A stretch of 36,151 nt of DNA from Bacteriovorax sp. (GTDB lineage Bacteria; Bdellovibrionota; Bacteriovoracia; Bacteriovoracales; Bacteriovoracaceae), in contig JACMRM010000210.1 in the NCBI GenBank assembly GCA_014376445.1, forward strand, positions 1 to 36,151, in the 5' to 3' direction. The position numbers were made by a program, and so were the translations under genes. Numbering within the stretch: position 1 is the first letter of the stretch; each line of letters starts with the position of its first letter. This document shows positions 23-6,222 of the stretch, in pieces. The notes under the pieces were generated by a model that saw only the letters and a program-made list of their open reading frames with translations, had not been told where the DNA came from and searched no databases.

Positions 23-565
23 TTATTCGCAGCGAAAGCTTTCTATCATTTTATTCATAGTAGGTGCCCATTTTTCAATATGTTCCACTTGAATCAGGGT
101 TTTAATGTGGAAAGTCTCCTTTTTACAATTAATGTAATAAGACTTCTCCTCCAAATTAACATTGTTAAAAATATACAAATGTCCAAACTGGTGAATCTCT
201 ATTTTTTTGCCATCTGTAGTAAAAGTTTTTAAAGGAAGAAAGGTAATAGATTTACCATTGAATTGCTGAAGCCAGGCCAGTCTACTTAACTTGTAACTTT
301 CTTCGGCCTTGGTTTTATCATCTAAAACTAGTTTTTCATTTTTTAGATCTACTGGCACAAAAAGAAGAACTGGCCTCTGGTCTTCATATATCGGCCCTAA
401 TAACTTGAGTGGAATTCCTACATCTTTATTCACTGTCTGCCAGTCAGAAGGCACATCGAAAGAAACTTTCTTATTAAGAACAGTAAACTTAGTTAATCCT
501 GCCCAACCCGGGGTTACAGACATTGCTAAGACGGTAAGTGTAATCAAAGTTTTTATTTTATTCAT
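23..565 (-). CDS. Small exported protein of unknown function
   Basis: I do not recognise a family. From the second ATG (position 565) the protein is 180 residues and opens with a good Sec signal peptide: a short Lys-containing start, a hydrophobic core, and a probable cleavage after PGWA near residue 22. An ATG three codons upstream (574) is also possible; neither has a convincing ribosome-binding site. The mature part is mixed alpha/beta in character, with a motif around SFDVPSDWQ near the start that resembles many small secreted proteins of unknown function, and only two cysteines, both near the C-terminus. It is probably periplasmic. It is transcribed divergently from the large redox protein gene across about 100 bp, so the two may share control. 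Confidence 0.7.
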   Translation of the reverse strand: MNKIKTLITLTVLAMSVTPGWAGLTKFTVLNKKVSFDVPSDWQTVNKDVGIPLKLLGPIYEDQRPVLLFVPVDLKNEKLVLDDKTKAEESYKLSRLAWLQQFNGKSITFLPLKTFTTDGKKIEIHQFGHLYIFNNVNLEEKSYYINCKKETFHIKTLIQVEHIEKWAPTMNKMIESFRCE

Positions 566-636
566 AAAAGTCATATCGGAAAATTATTTTTGGGGCCTTA
601 GATGCCTTCTTCAAAACAAAACAGTCGGGAATAGGT

Positions 637-675: not shown

Positions 676-3600
676 ATGAAAAAAATAAAATATTTTATTC
701 TCATTGCTCAATTATTACTATCTTCGCTTAATGTTGCGTACACTGCACCAGCTGTTGAAGTCGGTGTGGAAGTAAAGACTGCATTAGTAGATTTAAAAAA
801 CTACTGTGAAGATGTTTCACAACATCCTATTAATTATGCAAAAAATTCTAAAGATAAATCAGTTCTTTCAGTTCCGGTGGAAACTGCACCAGGTGTAGTG
901 AAATACGATACCTTTATAAAGGTTGATCATCCAAACGGACCAAGTTACATATCATGCTTTCAAAATTTCAAAACTCCATTTAAGCCAATCTCATTGGCAA
1001 AAGCAATCGCACTTGAAGAAGAAAAACTTCGTACCTGCACTGATTGCAGAAGAGGGAGCTCTGAAGCTACGATCGACAAAACCAGCAAGAATGTAAAAAA
1101 GATTACAGAAAAAATGATGTGTGAGGAGTCTAAAAAGACTTCTCTTCCTCAATGTGCGAACGACTTAGCTTATTGTGGACTTGAAAATCTGCACCTGACT
1201 AAGGCCATTGATATTCCAAAATCTAGAGACCTTAAGTGTGGAACAATGCTCGACGGTCAAAAAGACCTCGGCCAATGTATGGCGATATTTATACGAGGTG
1301 CTTTTAACGAAATTACAGACACATTGAAGCTACTGGTTGTTGATGGTCCAAAATGGATTTACAACAAAACTCTTGGATCATGGTTTCAAGAACCAGCTGT
1401 AAAACAAATGGAAAACGTTGGTAGTATGGAAGCTATCGCTTCAAGTACTGCAACCGACAAACAAATTAAACAAGAAATTGCTGAACCAAAAAAAGCACTG
1501 ATGGAAAAGATCAGTACGTTTGCTCAAAATTTGATTCTTGAAAAAGGTGTGGCGGAATTTGGATGTTCTGAGTGGTCGACTGGTGTACCAGGAATTGGAA
1601 AATGTGTTTCTCCACCTGCAAGTTGGGAATGTTCAAGCTGTAAACAGAAGGCCATGACTCTTTGTGGAGTGGCTGGTTACGCTACAGGAATGGTTGTCGA
1701 AACGGCCGTACTCGCCGCTCCGATAGGAGTTATTGCTGGTTCTGGTCTTGCCGTAATAGGAGTTGTTTCAAAAACAGCAAAGGTTGCAAAAGTTACTAAG
1801 GCCCTGAAAGTTGGAGAAATTTTTAAAGGAAGTGAAATAGCTAGCGCTGCTAAAAATGTGACTAAAGTTGGTGTAGACGTATCTAAAGCGGCCATTAAAT
1901 TACTCGCGCCGATCGCCAGCACAGGTTATAAAATTGGTAAAGGAACTGTAGAAGTTTTAAAACTTATTCCTGGTGTTGAACTTACTGCAAAGGTTTTGAG
2001 CACCCCATTTAAATTATGGATGAAGGCAGATGATATTTTAATATCAAAAGTTTGGAGCTTAACTTATCACGGGTCGGCCGCTTATACGCAGACACTAATG
2101 AAAACAGGAGATATTGTACTTGCTGCAAAATCTGCACAAACCGCTTCGAAATTAAATCAAGCAGAGAAGGCCGGAGAAGCTCTTCTAAAAACTCAATCTG
2201 AACTAAAAGTTGCAGAAGAAAAGCTGGCGACAGCTACAGAGAAGAAAGAAGCCAAAGTAGCTAAAGAAAATCACGCAAAACTTCAACTTACATTAACGGC
2301 TCAACAAAAACGTTACACTGCTTTAAATAAAAGTATTACTCCGGCAGAAATTAATAGCGCAAAACTTTTAGAAAGTGAGCATACTGAGAAGTTAGTTTTA
2401 GATTATAATAAAGTTCAAGCAAGCATTCTTGAAAGGTCTCCAGCAAAAGTAGAAGAAGTAGTTGTAGCGGAACAAGCAGTAAAAGCTGAAACCTTAGCTG
2501 AAACGACTGAAGCTGGTTTAGTTGCAGGACCTACTCTAAAATTTACAACGAGAGAAGAAAGTGCAGATGCACTTGCAAAGATTATTGCTGTCGATGAAGA
2601 GATGCAAAAACTTATCTCTGATCCAATTATTGCACAATATATTTATTTAAATCACTTTGCTCCAGTCAAAGAGCAAAATGAATTAAAAATTGCCTTACAG
2701 GATATAGTAAACTCTTCAGAGCATAAAGAATTGGATCTTTTCGATCTGGTCAACAAGAAACTGGAAAGTAAAATAAAAGATCCTGCAATTCAGGCAAAAG
2801 TAAAAGCGGCTTTTGAAGGAAGTGATAAAGGATTAAGACCAACTAAATTGAACGCAAATTTATATGAAATTAAATCTAAAATGAATTTGATCGCAAAAAT
2901 GCCATGGACGATTTCAAGAATTAAAAAATTAACAGATGAAGGTTTCGCACTAGAAGTTATGGATGAAGGTCTATTTCACTTTTACGGTGCAACTCAGTTA
3001 GGTTTACGAGAATCACAAATGAGACCATGGGAGCTTATCCCTGGAGGTTTCAGTGCAATCAGACCAGGACAAATTGAAGACATGTCTCCAGAGTTTTGGG
3101 CGGGAATGGCGCGGTTTGCTTCTGAAACAGAGGCTCCAATTCACGGTTACTCAACAAACAGTGGTGATGCTCTCAGAGGTTTAATTCCTTCAATTTCCCG
3201 CTTTATGGGAAAAAATGAAGAAGAGTATGGTGCCTTTAATAAAGCTGTAGAAGAAACAATGGCGAAAGGTGGAAAAGAATCTGATGTAGGCCAGTTCTGT
3301 ACCAACGTCTGGTGTGGTGAAGAAAATCGTCACGAAAATGCTGTTGAACAATTCGCTAACCAGGTTTCAGGACAGAAAAAAGAAGGACCTAAAACTTACG
3401 AAGCAGATAAGCGTGGGGATTACATGGATCCCGAATATGGTCTGAAACATTTAGTTGGAAGAAATTCCAGCGAGTGGAATGCTAACTCAATTTACATTTA
3501 TATGAGATCTCACTCGAATGGGGCAGCTAACAAGTGGGTTGATCAGGTTCGCCAGGATGAGACGAAACATATGGCGATTTTCGCTTCAGCCTTTAAATAC

Positions 3601-5184
3601 TTTTACGGTGACCAGCCGGGAGTAAGAACTAAAGGGATGATCGATAAAATTATGGACCTGAAAAAACAAGCAGCAACAAGTAATAGTTCTGGTGATATTT
3701 TATCAGGCAACGCCCCCGTTCTCTTGGAGCTTGGAGTAACTCACTTATTCGTAGAAAATAAAGTTCGTCAGTTTATGAAAAGCGTTCCATTAAAGACAAT
3801 GGAAAAAATATTTGATTCACCGGTAAAAACGCTGAGAGATTTGGATACGCTTCCTTTAACAGCAGAAAAGAAAGTGGCCATTCTTGAAATGAACGAACGA
3901 GAACTTGCAAACCGTGCAAAGCTTTCGAGATGGACTCCGAAGGAAAGAGGTCTTTATCTTTCTCTGAAAAAAGTTGAAGAAGAAAAAGGTGAGCTGATTG
4001 GAAGTCTTATTGAAACTTTATTCGATGGTTTCAGAGGAGCCGAAATTCCTGAATCTGCAGCATCGAAAGCAATGATCGCACAGATTGAAAAACTTAAAAC
4101 TGGTCTTGATCCTAAGACAAATGCTCTTATTCAAATGTCTTTGAAAGAGACTATGCGTGATTATCAAATTATGAACAATAAGTTTGTTCGTAACTCAGAC
4201 AATTTAAAAGTTAAATTTAAGAATGCTAGAGAAGGATTCATTGTTGAGAAAAAAGGACCGGGGGAAGCAGCAGTAATAAAAACTGAAAAGCTGACTGACT
4301 CTACTATTTTATTGCGAGTGAAAAAACCTGCTGACATGATGGACTTAAAACCTGGTCAAGGTATCAGCGTTGCTATTAAAACTGCAGATGGAATTGAGAA
4401 GCGTGTGTTTTCTCTGGCAAGCAATCCAGATAAAGATTATGTTGAATTTGGTATTGGTCTTTCTGATACAGAATTTAAAAAATCATTACAAAAACTTAAG
4501 CCAGGTGAAACTGTTACTCTAACTAAAACTCCAGCAGGAATGGATTTCTTCACAGACAAACCAGCGATCATGATTGCCGGTGGTGTCGGTATCACTCCAT
4601 TCAGAAGTATGATGCAATATGCGAAGGATAATAAATTAAAAACTCCGATGCATCTTTACTACTCTAACCGTAGCCAAATCCCATTTGGAAAAGAATTTAG
4701 TGAAATGGCCGCAACGACACCTGAGCTTAACGTAACAAATATTTTAAGTAAGGCCGATGATTCATGGGCCGGAAAACGCGGAAGAATTGATGAACCATTC
4801 TTAACAGAAGAAATAAAAACTCTTCCGAAAGATTCGAAGTATTACGTAGTCGGACCCCCGGCAATGGTTATTGGTACAAAAGATAACCTGATCAAGTTAG
4901 GAGTGAAGCCGGAAGATATACAGATTGAATTTTTTGAAGCGCCTAAGCAACCTGAACGTGCTACAGCAGCCACCGACAAAGGAGCTGACGTTGCTCCTGC
5001 AACAGATAAAACAGTTTGCCACTGTTTCAGTGTACCTGAATCAAAAATCATTCAGGTCATCAAAGGTGGAGCGACAACACTTGACGATATCGCCAGCCAG
5101 ACAGGTGCGAGCCGTGGTTGTGGTAAATGTGCATGTAGCGTAAGTGATGTACTTACTTGTGAAATGAAAAAGATGGGCAAGTAA
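676..5184 (+). CDS. Multidomain membrane-tethered redox protein: Cys-rich exported domain + acyl-ACP-desaturase-like diiron domain + FNR module + BFD [2Fe-2S] domain
   Basis: The protein has 1502 residues. Residues 1-23 form a signal peptide (MKKIKYFILI start). Residues 24-330 hold 14 cysteines. Residues 343-364 are an uninterrupted hydrophobic stretch followed by a Lys-rich segment, a likely transmembrane helix with the C-terminal part inside. Residues 370-620 are Ala/Lys/Glu-rich helices, with probable coiled coil near 495-560. Residues 740-990 resemble acyl-ACP desaturases: EENRH (E882, E883, H886) and DETKH (D961, E962, H965) match the two EExxH/DExxH diiron motifs, a MDP motif lies between them, and E819 is a candidate for the first ligand. 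Residues about 1177-1420 are a ferredoxin-reductase-like module with RVFS (1243-1246, FAD), GGVGITP (1302-1308, NAD(P)H) and VVGPPAM (1391-1397). Residues 1446-1500 are BFD-like, with C1448, C1450, C1482 and C1485. Inferred role: NAD(P)H-driven desaturation or oxygenation with built-in electron transfer. The substrate is unknown. The reading frame is open throughout. Confidence 0.8.
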   Translation: MKKIKYFILIAQLLLSSLNVAYTAPAVEVGVEVKTALVDLKNYCEDVSQHPINYAKNSKDKSVLSVPVETAPGVVKYDTFIKVDHPNGPSYISCFQNFKTPFKPISLAKAIALEEEKLRTCTDCRRGSSEATIDKTSKNVKKITEKMMCEESKKTSLPQCANDLAYCGLENLHLTKAIDIPKSRDLKCGTMLDGQKDLGQCMAIFIRGAFNEITDTLKLLVVDGPKWIYNKTLGSWFQEPAVKQMENVGSMEAIASSTATDKQIKQEIAEPKKALMEKISTFAQNLILEKGVAEFGCSEWSTGVPGIGKCVSPPASWECSSCKQKAMTLCGVAGYATGMVVETAVLAAPIGVIAGSGLAVIGVVSKTAKVAKVTKALKVGEIFKGSEIASAAKNVTKVGVDVSKAAIKLLAPIASTGYKIGKGTVEVLKLIPGVELTAKVLSTPFKLWMKADDILISKVWSLTYHGSAAYTQTLMKTGDIVLAAKSAQTASKLNQAEKAGEALLKTQSELKVAEEKLATATEKKEAKVAKENHAKLQLTLTAQQKRYTALNKSITPAEINSAKLLESEHTEKLVLDYNKVQASILERSPAKVEEVVVAEQAVKAETLAETTEAGLVAGPTLKFTTREESADALAKIIAVDEEMQKLISDPIIAQYIYLNHFAPVKEQNELKIALQDIVNSSEHKELDLFDLVNKKLESKIKDPAIQAKVKAAFEGSDKGLRPTKLNANLYEIKSKMNLIAKMPWTISRIKKLTDEGFALEVMDEGLFHFYGATQLGLRESQMRPWELIPGGFSAIRPGQIEDMSPEFWAGMARFASETEAPIHGYSTNSGDALRGLIPSISRFMGKNEEEYGAFNKAVEETMAKGGKESDVGQFCTNVWCGEENRHENAVEQFANQVSGQKKEGPKTYEADKRGDYMDPEYGLKHLVGRNSSEWNANSIYIYMRSHSNGAANKWVDQVRQDETKHMAIFASAFKYFYGDQPGVRTKGMIDKIMDLKKQAATSNSSGDILSGNAPVLLELGVTHLFVENKVRQFMKSVPLKTMEKIFDSPVKTLRDLDTLPLTAEKKVAILEMNERELANRAKLSRWTPKERGLYLSLKKVEEEKGELIGSLIETLFDGFRGAEIPESAASKAMIAQIEKLKTGLDPKTNALIQMSLKETMRDYQIMNNKFVRNSDNLKVKFKNAREGFIVEKKGPGEAAVIKTEKLTDSTILLRVKKPADMMDLKPGQGISVAIKTADGIEKRVFSLASNPDKDYVEFGIGLSDTEFKKSLQKLKPGETVTLTKTPAGMDFFTDKPAIMIAGGVGITPFRSMMQYAKDNKLKTPMHLYYSNRSQIPFGKEFSEMAATTPELNVTNILSKADDSWAGKRGRIDEPFLTEEIKTLPKDSKYYVVGPPAMVIGTKDNLIKLGVKPEDIQIEFFEAPKQPERATAATDKGADVAPATDKTVCHCFSVPESKIIQVIKGGATTLDDIASQTGASRGCGKCACSVSDVLTCEMKKMGK

Positions 5185-5192
5185 ATTTTTTT
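5154..5192 (+). terminator. Weak possible terminator at the end of the large redox gene
   Basis: TACTTG (5154-5159) and CAAGTA (5178-5183) can pair, and a run of seven T follows at 5186-5192. The stem is only 6 bp, the loop is 18 nt, and the hairpin overlaps the last codons. The converging oxidoreductase gene ends at 5191, leaving only 6 bp between genes, so some termination signal is expected here. Low confidence. Confidence 0.25.
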
Positions 5193-6222
5193 AACACTTT
5201 AAAACAATCTTACCTGTCGTCTGTCCGGACTCAATTGCTTTATGGGCCTCTCCAACATTTTCGAAGGCGAAACTTGTTGTCTGTGGGCCTGTAATTTTCC
5301 CAGTTTCCAAAAGCTCAACCAAATGAATAATTGCAGCTCTAAAAATATCTTTTTTATCAAATAAAAAAGACAGATTGAATGTAACCAAACTTTTATTCTT
5401 GTTGGTCATATCCAGTGGGTTAAATCGTGGTGTCTTAAAATAAGTCCAGATCAGCTGAAGATAATTTAGCCTTCCTCCGCTTTTTGGAAGCATTGAATGA
5501 AATCCATACACCATTAGCTTTCCCGAAGGCGCCAGATGCTCGTAGCTATGTTTAAGCGTCGAAGCTCCATTGGCATCAAGGATCACATCATAACCTGCTG
5601 GAGAAATCTTTTCTACCTCTTTCCATAAGTCCTGTGTCGATTTATCTATAACATGATTAGCTCCAAGTTTTTTTGCAACTTCAACTTTATGAGACGAACC
5701 TACAATTCCTATCGACTCATAACCCATGTATCGGCAAAGTTGTAAAAGAGCGCTACCTACTCCGCCTGCGCAAGAATGAATAAGGATCTTTGCATTTTTT
5801 TGAATAACAATATTATGAAAGAGTGCATGATAGGCCGTAAGATAAACGGCAGGAAAAGCAGCTGCTTGTTCCAGCGTTAAATTTTTTGGCAGATGAAAAA
5901 CAAAATCTTCAGGAAGAGCGATGTGTGTGGTGTAAGCACCAAATCGAGTAACTCCAAAAACTTTATCGCCAGCTTTAAAACCAGTAACCATGCTTCCAAC
6001 TTTTTCTACAACACCTGAAAGCTCAAATCCTGGAGTGATAGGCCATCCAACGTATTCTTTTGCCGATGAATAAACTCCCCAGCGAATAAGAACATCAGCG
6101 TAATTAATTCCGATAAAGCTTACTTTAATTAATACTTCATTGTCCTGAGGCTCAGGTGTAGCACTTTCTTCAATTGCAAGTTGTTTATAATCACCTGGTT
6201 TATGAATAACGATTTTTTTCAT
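5191..6222 (-). CDS. Zinc-independent MDR-family oxidoreductase, VAT-1/quinone-oxidoreductase-like
   Basis: The protein has 343 residues, the normal length for medium-chain dehydrogenases/reductases. An N-terminal GroES-like fold (about 1-125) contains INYAD (40-44) and PGFELSG (64-70). The Rossmann fold has the nucleotide-binding motif AGGVGS (152-157). The catalytic and structural zinc ligands of alcohol dehydrogenases are absent, as in the quinone oxidoreductase branch. A distinctive segment about 238-290 (GFHSMLPKSGGRLN, then TPRFNPLDM and NKSLVTFNLSFLF) is typical of the VAT-1 homologue group. Expected reaction: NADPH-dependent reduction of a quinone or enone; substrate unknown. AAGG lies 5 nt before the ATG. 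It follows polA on the same strand after 73 bp, so it may be cotranscribed or have its own promoter; a TATAAT lies just upstream of the AAGG. Confidence 0.85.
   Translation of the reverse strand: MKKIVIHKPGDYKQLAIEESATPEPQDNEVLIKVSFIGINYADVLIRWGVYSSAKEYVGWPITPGFELSGVVEKVGSMVTGFKAGDKVFGVTRFGAYTTHIALPEDFVFHLPKNLTLEQAAAFPAVYLTAYHALFHNIVIQKNAKILIHSCAGGVGSALLQLCRYMGYESIGIVGSSHKVEVAKKLGANHVIDKSTQDLWKEVEKISPAGYDVILDANGASTLKHSYEHLAPSGKLMVYGFHSMLPKSGGRLNYLQLIWTYFKTPRFNPLDMTNKNKSLVTFNLSFLFDKKDIFRAAIIHLVELLETGKITGPQTTSFAFENVGEAHKAIESGQTTGKIVLKC

What the first reader, a model, noticed from the sequence alone, without database searches (positions are those of the whole stretch)
676..5184. Single-chain diiron desaturase-like enzyme fused to its own FAD reductase and [2Fe-2S] domain
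Acyl-ACP desaturases are normally separate soluble proteins that receive electrons from ferredoxin and ferredoxin reductase. Here one 1502-residue frame carries the EENRH and DETKH diiron motifs (residues 882-886 and 961-965, about 80 apart as in plant stearoyl-ACP desaturase), a MDP segment between them as in that enzyme, an FNR-like FAD/NAD(P)H module and a BFD-like 2Fe-2S domain. The sequence shows each motif directly. That they form a complete electron path NAD(P)H to FAD to 2Fe-2S to diiron is inference. I know of no described enzyme with this domain order.
Basis: partly seen in the sequence, partly recalled or inferred. Interest (0 to 1): 0.8.

Follow-up and report, generated by a model that had tools for sequence, protein, structure and literature searches.

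The report
Self-powered diiron enzyme of predatory bacteria
A bacterium from a group known for preying on other bacteria encodes one large, apparently exported protein that joins an iron-based oxidising domain to its own electron supply, behind a front end that its relatives attach to many different enzymes, so it may be one of a kit of proteins that predators aim at prey.

Summary
The 1502-aa frame is real: a 61%-identical homologue of the same length in a second genome of the genus rules out frame-joining. FNR (1196-1425) and BFD [2Fe-2S] (1446-1493) domains are confirmed. Residues 720-1190 look like a divergent ferritin-like diiron domain, found in 7 of 368 Bdellovibrionota genomes: six candidate ligands (E819, E883, H886, E933, E962, H965) are invariant in 7 of 7 and lie on four predicted helices. 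Kinship to acyl-ACP desaturases could not be shown. Four of seven members carry the FNR-BFD fusion; their FNRs form one clade among 32. Best reading: an exported, self-sufficient NAD(P)H-driven diiron oxidase/oxygenase, here mounted as one payload of a polymorphic effector-like family. Cofactors, chemistry, export route and prey target are inferred.

The parts
676..5184 (+). the whole gene, 1502 aa
   Evidence: homologue of the same length at 61% identity
676..747 (+). signal-peptide-like segment, residues 1-24 (cleavage site estimated by eye)
   Evidence: hydropathy; crude signal-peptide rule met by 7 of 7 diiron proteins
748..2085 (+). Cys-rich N-terminal module shared with many other large proteins, residues about 25-470
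   Evidence: single-sequence matches E 1.5e-9 to 1.5e-6; profile hits in 81 of 368 genomes; core motif in 59 of 69 ORFs
1657..1788 (+). hydrophobic stretch of the module, residues 328-371, possible membrane segment or hairpin
   Evidence: KD mean up to 2.16 over 19 residues
2086..2832 (+). helical linker, residues 471-719; its end can be aligned with some of the plain relatives
   Evidence: alignment; 50% identity to G001
2833..4245 (+). ferritin-like diiron domain, residues 720-1190
   Evidence: 7 of 368 genomes; AF2 pLDDT 85.3, pTM 0.86; 52 invariant columns in 7 sequences
3130..3132 (+). E819, candidate iron ligand
   Evidence: invariant 7 of 7
3298..3315 (+). C875-x4-C880, invariant cysteine pair before the first ExxH, candidate disulfide
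   Evidence: invariant 7 of 7; cysteine lists
3319..3333 (+). EENRH 882-886: candidate ligands E883 and H886
3472..3474 (+).
   Evidence: invariant 7 of 7
3556..3570 (+). DETKH 961-965: candidate ligands E962 and H965
4261..4950 (+). FNR-like FAD/NAD(P)H reductase domain, residues 1196-1425
   Evidence: fused FNRs one clade among 32
5011..5154 (+). BFD-like [2Fe-2S] domain, residues 1446-1493, C1448/C1450 and C1482/C1485
   Evidence: Fer2_BFD E 3.1e-10; cysteine list
5191..6222 (-). partner gene: VAT-1-like medium-chain reductase, 343 aa, no signal-peptide-like start
   Evidence: a relative adjoins the diiron gene in 7 of 7 loci; best solved relatives VAT-1 homologues, E 3.2e-51
23..574 (-). 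divergent 183-aa gene, in the same place in the second genome; belonging to the system uncertain
   Evidence: 57% identity with L032:14224-14772; no Pfam match

Best explanation
It is an exported, self-sufficient diiron oxidase/oxygenase. Residues 1196-1425 take hydride from NAD(P)H onto FAD, the BFD domain passes single electrons through a [2Fe-2S] cluster, and a ferritin-like helical domain with six carboxylate/histidine ligands activates O2 on an unknown, probably hydrophobic, substrate. It works with a VAT-1-like NAD(P)H reductase encoded next to it. In this genus the enzyme sits behind a Cys-rich module that Bdellovibrionota fuse to many different C-terminal parts, so it is most likely one payload of an effector-like family meant to act outside the predator, possibly in prey. 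Shown: FNR and BFD domains, ligand conservation, a common ancestry of the fused FNRs within the set tested, gene neighbourhood, the shared module and the variety of its C-termini. Inferred: bound cofactors, metal site geometry, electron path, O2 chemistry, true export, prey target.
For: FNR and BFD domains. Six candidate ligands invariant in 7 of 7, on helices 805-832, 878-898, 919-945 and 949-977 (one search agrees except that the first helix breaks at 819/821). The more probable of the weak Foldseek matches are ferritin-like diiron proteins: 3ez0, R2lox, ADO, AurF, PaaA/C. Fused FNRs one clade, 100/98, among 32. A medium-chain reductase gene adjoins in 7 of 7, in 5 of 7 co-oriented and within 17 bases; close orthologues of the window's one in only 44 of 368 genomes. 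Signal-like N-terminus 7 of 7; partners at their first start codon 0 of 7. Module in 81 of 368 genomes; 67 tails in 23 BLAST clusters; Fic and PI3/4-kinase-like payloads. Those use ATP-type cofactors (recalled) and this one NAD(P)H, all cytosolic, which would fit action inside another cell.
Against: No significant sequence or fold match of the diiron domain to any solved enzyme: none with E <= 0.001 among 224, and the row with the best E-value is a transporter (E 0.16, probability 0.23). Three of seven members lack FNR-BFD. Loading FAD and a [2Fe-2S] cluster onto a Sec-exported chain is awkward. The stretch 328-371 could turn the C-terminus back to the predator's cytosol. The partner reductase has no signal-like start. 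Only 2 of 14 genomes of the genus carry the protein. The signal rule is crude: 42 of 107 control ORFs pass, and with internal starts allowed 1 of 7 partners passes. The number of tail clusters depends on the threshold: 23, 21, or 7 at E up to 1, where chance links join most tails, the window's included. 17 of 22 module proteins scanned show no recognisable payload.
Confidence: 0.5

Rival explanations
1. Inner-membrane enzyme facing the predator's own cytosol: the signal peptide is cleaved, residues 25-327 are periplasmic, 328-371 crosses the membrane, and the diiron-FNR-BFD part stays in the cytosol and modifies the predator's lipids or quinones.
For: Hydrophobic stretch up to KD 2.16; NAD(P)H and Fe-S loading are then trivial; the partner reductase lacks a signal-like start.
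Against: The five plain relatives show no hydrophobic segment beyond the N-terminal one at the threshold used, so the same enzyme there would lie outside. In the other module proteins with the core motif the stretch is less hydrophobic (0.85-1.94).
Confidence: 0.22
2. Iron-mobilising or ferritin-reducing enzyme: FNR and BFD feed electrons to a ferritin-like domain as FPR and Bfd do for bacterioferritin (recalled pathway), releasing or handling iron rather than oxidising an organic substrate.
For: Fer2_BFD match; weak matches to solved bacterioferritin-associated ferredoxins, E 0.07-0.25; weak Pfam rubrerythrin matches in 2 of 7 members, best E 0.023.
Against: No ferritin-family match over a cut-off (an unrelated family, DUF3877, scored better, E 0.0023); the domain is about 470 aa with extra helices; three members lack FNR-BFD.
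Confidence: 0.13
3. True acyl-ACP desaturase with fused reductase, making unsaturated fatty acids for the predator.
For: EExRH and DExKH motifs; distance between the two motifs 77-81 against 86 in three and 81 in two PF03405 proteins of the phylum; the weak HHalign match to the five-row set lines up both ExxH motifs; FA_desaturase_2 E 0.086.
Against: Below the Pfam cut-off; HHalign probability 3.5-3.7% (2.1% against AurF-like proteins, 0.1% against the unrelated partner set); no desaturase among the 50 listed fold matches; acyl-ACP is cytosolic (recalled) while all seven members begin with a signal-like segment.
Confidence: 0.1
4. Assembly or frame-joining artefact.
For: The source is a fragmented genome assembly, 87.8% complete, 284 contigs.
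Against: Homologue of the same length in another assembly, codon-position pattern, diiron-FNR-BFD also in G269 and G216.
Confidence: 0.02

Closest known systems
AlkB fused to ferredoxin and ferredoxin reductase (PMC8918992, passages seen)
   Same: A diiron oxygenase with its electron-transfer partners in one polypeptide.
   Different: AlkB is an integral-membrane enzyme; here the iron domain is predicted as a soluble helical bundle, the 2Fe-2S domain is BFD-type, and an export-like module stands in front. The same review, citing a 2001 paper, says that no ferredoxin-fused desaturase had been found.
FA_desaturase_2 (PF03405), acyl-ACP desaturases
   Same: E, ExxH, E, ExxH ligand order (recalled for the family), a WxxEExxH-like string and a similar distance between the two ExxH motifs (77-81 against 81-86).
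   Different: No significant profile match, no listed fold match, export-like signal, fused reductase.
Aldehyde-deformylating oxygenase, R2lox, AurF, PaaA/C
   Same: Among the more probable of the weak fold matches; ferritin-like diiron bundles.
   Different: E 0.3 or worse, TM-score by target length 0.25-0.44; none has fused FNR and BFD (recalled).
FPR-Bfd-bacterioferritin (recalled)
   Same: NAD(P)H to FAD to BFD 2Fe-2S to a ferritin-like protein.
   Different: Separate proteins and a haem-bearing cage; here one chain and no ferritin family match over a cut-off.
Polymorphic toxins and effectors
   Same: One conserved N-terminal module with many alternative C-termini, a few of them Fic or kinase-like.
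   Different: No immunity gene, toxicity or delivery route shown; this payload is a multi-cofactor redox enzyme.

Membership tests
FA_desaturase_2 / acyl-ACP desaturase | profile score over the Pfam gathering cut-off | tested here: not met
   12.1 bits against 22.7; listed for 1 of 7 members, E 0.12
FA_desaturase_2 / acyl-ACP desaturase | fold match to solved stearoyl-ACP desaturases | tested here: not met
   none among the 50 rows listed of 224 matches; no match of any kind with E <= 0.001; rows 51-224 were not shown
FA_desaturase_2 / acyl-ACP desaturase | profile-profile kinship to known members | tested here: inconclusive
   HHalign 3.5-3.7%, but desaturase and AurF sets recognise each other at only 5.4% (three rows) or 55.9% (five rows), so power is limited
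FA_desaturase_2 / acyl-ACP desaturase | desaturates acyl-ACP | not testable with these tools
   needs biochemistry
ferritin-like diiron superfamily | E, ExxH, E, ExxH ligands conserved | tested here: met
   E819, E883/H886, E933, E962/H965 invariant 7 of 7
ferritin-like diiron superfamily | ligands on four helices that meet at one metal site | tested here: inconclusive
FNR-type reductase | FAD- and NAD-binding domains | tested here: met
   NAD_binding_1 69.9 bits against 22; FAD_binding_6 below cut-off, 15.4 against 21.1; Foldseek E down to 2.2e-12 with proteins that bear an FNR domain
BFD-like [2Fe-2S] | profile match and four cysteines | tested here: met
   40.7 bits against 26; C1448, C1450, C1482, C1485
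polymorphic effector/toxin family | shared N-terminal module with variable C-termini | tested here: met
   81 of 368 genomes; 67 tails in 23 BLAST clusters, 21 at a looser threshold
polymorphic effector/toxin family | export signal | tested here: inconclusive
   64 of 67 module proteins against 42 of 107 control ORFs by a crude rule; no trained predictor was available
polymorphic effector/toxin family | cognate immunity gene, toxicity, delivery into another cell | not tested
   no immunity candidate was sought beyond the immediate neighbours

The most novel reading that the evidence does not exclude
Bdellovibrionota possess a large, unnamed family of exported polymorphic effectors with a common Cys-rich delivery module. 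One payload is a complete NAD(P)H-driven diiron oxygenase that becomes active only after entering prey, where NAD(P)H and Fe-S assembly are available, and oxidises prey lipids or metabolites.
Probability: 0.25. Interest if true: 0.85.

Novelty: new variant of a known kind. Interest (0 to 1): 0.62.

Why it matters
A soluble diiron enzyme carrying its whole electron chain in one polypeptide would be a new natural self-sufficient oxygenase and a possible biocatalyst. More broadly, the shared module with swappable C-termini gives a concrete, testable candidate set for how Bdellovibrionota act on prey contents; a review of Bdellovibrio lists access to prey cytoplasmic contents as an open question (PMC10225642, passages seen).

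Tried and rejected
Desaturase membership: Pfam; sequence search against solved structures (best E 0.29; best E 0.0047 to a mechanosensitive channel; no diiron protein in either); HHalign against three and five PF03405 proteins of the phylum and twelve AurF-like proteins (one search was the same with wrongly extracted rows and is superseded); Foldseek. Not accepted as shown kinship.

Artefact: rejected.

Partner as a constant companion wherever it occurs: rejected. Close orthologues (E <= 1e-80) occur in 44 of 368 genomes, six of them diiron carriers. In 20 inspected of the 38 others the flanks vary and hold no diiron gene by profile. The seventh carrier, G364, has a more divergent neighbour (30-34% identity to the rest); only the window's partner was compared with solved structures.

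Other searches: no match in plasmids (query the 612-aa G288 protein); none in the defence-system library. RNA folds at two places and a promoter/terminator scan: nothing above shuffles.

Literature: nine searches. Judged from titles and starts of abstracts, no listed paper concerns this enzyme or the module family; one search listed 12 of 21. Passages were seen of three papers: PMC8918992, PMC12419801 (it describes other predicted secreted proteins of Bdellovibrionota) and PMC10225642.

Full report
Observation. The frame 676-5184 (+) encodes 1502 residues from an ATG, with EENRH at 882-886, DETKH at 961-965 and MDP at 917. The window is contig C127 of a genome of 3.41 Mb in 284 contigs, 87.8% complete. 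Pfam finds NAD_binding_1 (E 3.5e-19) and Fer2_BFD (E 3.1e-10); FAD_binding_6 is below its cut-off. A homologue of 1499 aa sits in one other genome of the genus, G001 (907 of 1498 aligned columns identical). A contig of the same length with the same match, titled a Bacteriovoracaceae genome, came from the named collection; that it is the same record as G001:C37 is my inference. Identities to it by part are 60% (module), 50% (linker), 72% (diiron), 61% (FNR) and 56% (BFD); codon positions are 0.697, 0.797 and 0.460 identical. The gene is real and its sequence constrained.

The diiron domain. A two-sequence profile of it finds 7 of 368 held Bdellovibrionota genomes: the two above and five from four other families. 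The five relatives are 599 to 870 aa: two carry FNR and BFD (G269, 832 aa; G216, 870 aa) and three do not (G276, G288, G364). No FNR or BFD lies in the 10-20 kb held around those three by tblastn (best E 0.64); the rest of their genomes was not asked. Of 52 invariant columns, six form the pattern E819, E883xxH886, E933, E962xxH965. Two cysteines just before the first ExxH (875, 880) are also invariant in 7 of 7. Invariant H1023, E1027 and R1031 lie one helix turn apart each on a later helix. The seven include one close pair (window and G001), so six independent lines at most.

Fold. AlphaFold2 with only seven rows gave pLDDT 75.1, pTM 0.64 for residues 620-1502 and pLDDT 85.3, pTM 0.86 for 720-1190. 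The top 50 Foldseek rows for the whole model are proteins with an FNR domain. The diiron model alone has no match with E <= 0.001 (224 up to E 10, 50 listed); the more probable rows are ferritin-like diiron proteins (3ez0 with probability 0.89, ADO up to 0.75, R2lox up to 0.51, AurF 0.28, PaaA/C up to 0.20), mixed with transporters of low probability, of which one has the best E-value (0.16, probability 0.23). So it looks like a divergent ferritin-like diiron domain, not demonstrably a desaturase. FA_desaturase_2 proper was found in 5 of 358 genomes of the phylum and not in G000 or G001. HHalign against these gives 3.5-3.7%, against AurF-like proteins 2.1% and against the unrelated partner set 0.1%, although the five-row desaturase comparison lines up both ExxH motifs. 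The desaturase and AurF sets recognise each other at 5.4% (three rows) or 55.9% (five rows), so this test has limited power.

The fusion. In a tree of 32 FNR domains (the four fused ones and one from each of 28 loci that one search had brought in by likeness to the window protein) the four diiron-fused ones form one clade with 100/98 support; the program warns that long branches meet, G216 and G269 among them. On the diiron tree the presence of FNR needs three changes, at least two forced by well-supported branches (G216 is a long branch). One origin of the fusion followed by losses is the simplest reading, not proven. Where FNR-BFD is absent another reductase would have to serve.

Partner gene. 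All seven diiron genes adjoin a gene for a medium-chain reductase. In five genomes it follows in the same direction, 17 bases away or less or overlapping by one base; in the window and G001 it is convergent. Six of the seven partners are 43-79% identical to each other; that of G364 is 30-34% identical to the rest. The window's one has VAT-1 homologues as best solved relatives (E 3.2e-51). Its close orthologues exist in 44 of 368 genomes, six of them diiron carriers. In 20 inspected of the 38 other genomes no diiron gene flanks it. Neighbourhood in 7 of 7 is therefore informative about a shared function.

The N-terminal module. Residues up to about 470 match other large proteins of the phylum already by single-sequence search (G017 E 1.5e-9, G029 3.9e-9, G018 2.7e-7 and 5.1e-7, G028 1.5e-6, per genome). 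A profile of seven rows, taken from the window, G001 and these, reaches 81 of 368 genomes at E <= 1e-4, 70 of them in the window's family; the six source genomes are among the 81 by construction. I fetched 60 further regions besides the seven first seen, not every match listed; 69 module ORFs resulted. A CxxW...C...CxxC...C core, followed by a more or less hydrophobic stretch, is present in 59 of 69. The parts after the module (67 of 69 that are 60 aa or longer) fall in 23 BLAST clusters at E 1e-4: sizes 21, 8, 6, 6, seven of 2 and twelve of 1; at E 0.01 there are 21, and at E 1 chance links leave 7 and draw the window's tail into a cluster of 58. Clusters are not proof of different functions. 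Of 22 such proteins scanned with Pfam (the window and G001 aside), five show a recognisable enzyme domain after the module: Fic in three (two over cut-off), PI3_PI4_kinase in one (over cut-off), GNAT in one (just below cut-off); 17 show none. One Fic domain resembles those of XopAC and AnkX in NCBIfam, far below their full-length cut-offs. This is a polymorphic architecture.

Export. A crude rule (basic start, hydrophobic core, small residues at a cleavage site; any of the first six start codons) is met by 64 of 67 module proteins with a closed 5' end and 7 of 7 diiron proteins, against 42 of 107 other ORFs of at least 250 aa. Partners: 0 of 7 at the first start, 1 of 7 (G364, an internal start) when the same six starts are allowed. 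The plain diiron relatives show no further membrane-like segment at the threshold used. This creates a puzzle: an export-signalled enzyme that needs FAD, NAD(P)H and a [2Fe-2S] cluster. Two solutions are open: action inside another cell, which would also suit Fic and kinase-like payloads, or, for the module-bearing proteins only, a second membrane passage at 328-371 that returns the C-terminus to the predator's cytosol. That the window's organism is itself a predator is inferred from its family, not shown.

Mechanism. Inferred chain: NAD(P)H to FAD to [2Fe-2S] to diiron, O2 activation, oxidation of an unknown substrate, with the VAT-1-like reductase acting on a related substrate or product. 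None of the chemistry is shown.

Known relatives. AlkB exists naturally fused to a ferredoxin and its reductase, and the same review states, citing 2001 work, that no ferredoxin-fused desaturase had been found (PMC8918992, passages). I know of no soluble ferritin-like diiron enzyme with fused FNR and BFD (recalled); nine searches of open-licence papers listed none that I could recognise from titles and abstract starts (one search listed 12 of 21), which covers neither most subscription journals nor preprints. Verdict: a new variant of a known kind (self-sufficient oxygenase) joined to what looks like an undescribed polymorphic family.

Noticed in passing
L111:1464-5855 (G072:C316): Module protein of 1464 aa whose C-terminus matches PI3_PI4_kinase (E 2.8e-7, over cut-off): a eukaryote-like kinase payload.
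   Followed up: partly
L033:7336-12105, L037:899-7588, L094:1361-5746: Module proteins with Fic domains, members of the largest tail cluster (21 of 67). By eye the tails of L033 and L037 look ADP-ribosyltransferase-like; that was not tested.
   Followed up: partly
L099, L116, L133, L139: In some module ORFs the profile match lies in the middle of the frame rather than at the start, with several hundred residues before it.
   Followed up: no
window:17449-22999 (-): Adjacent UvrD-helicase/PDDEXK and PDDEXK/Cas4-like genes, an AddAB-like pair by domain content (the name is recalled).
   Followed up: no
window:11402-16688 (-): Run of TPR-repeat proteins of 310, 961 and 489 aa; in the last the TPR matches are below cut-off.
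   Followed up: no
window residues 1023, 1027, 1031 (3742-3768): Invariant H-x3-E-x3-R on one helix of the diiron domain, possibly a further functional site.
   Followed up: no
L023 and G053:C3:270859-271626: Proteins of another family in the phylum that match the window's FNR and run into its BFD part, in a genome without a diiron hit; possibly related to the source of the fused reductase.
   Followed up: no
window:23-574 (-): Divergent 183-aa gene with a signal-like start by eye, in the same place and 57% identical in G001; no Pfam match.
   Followed up: partly
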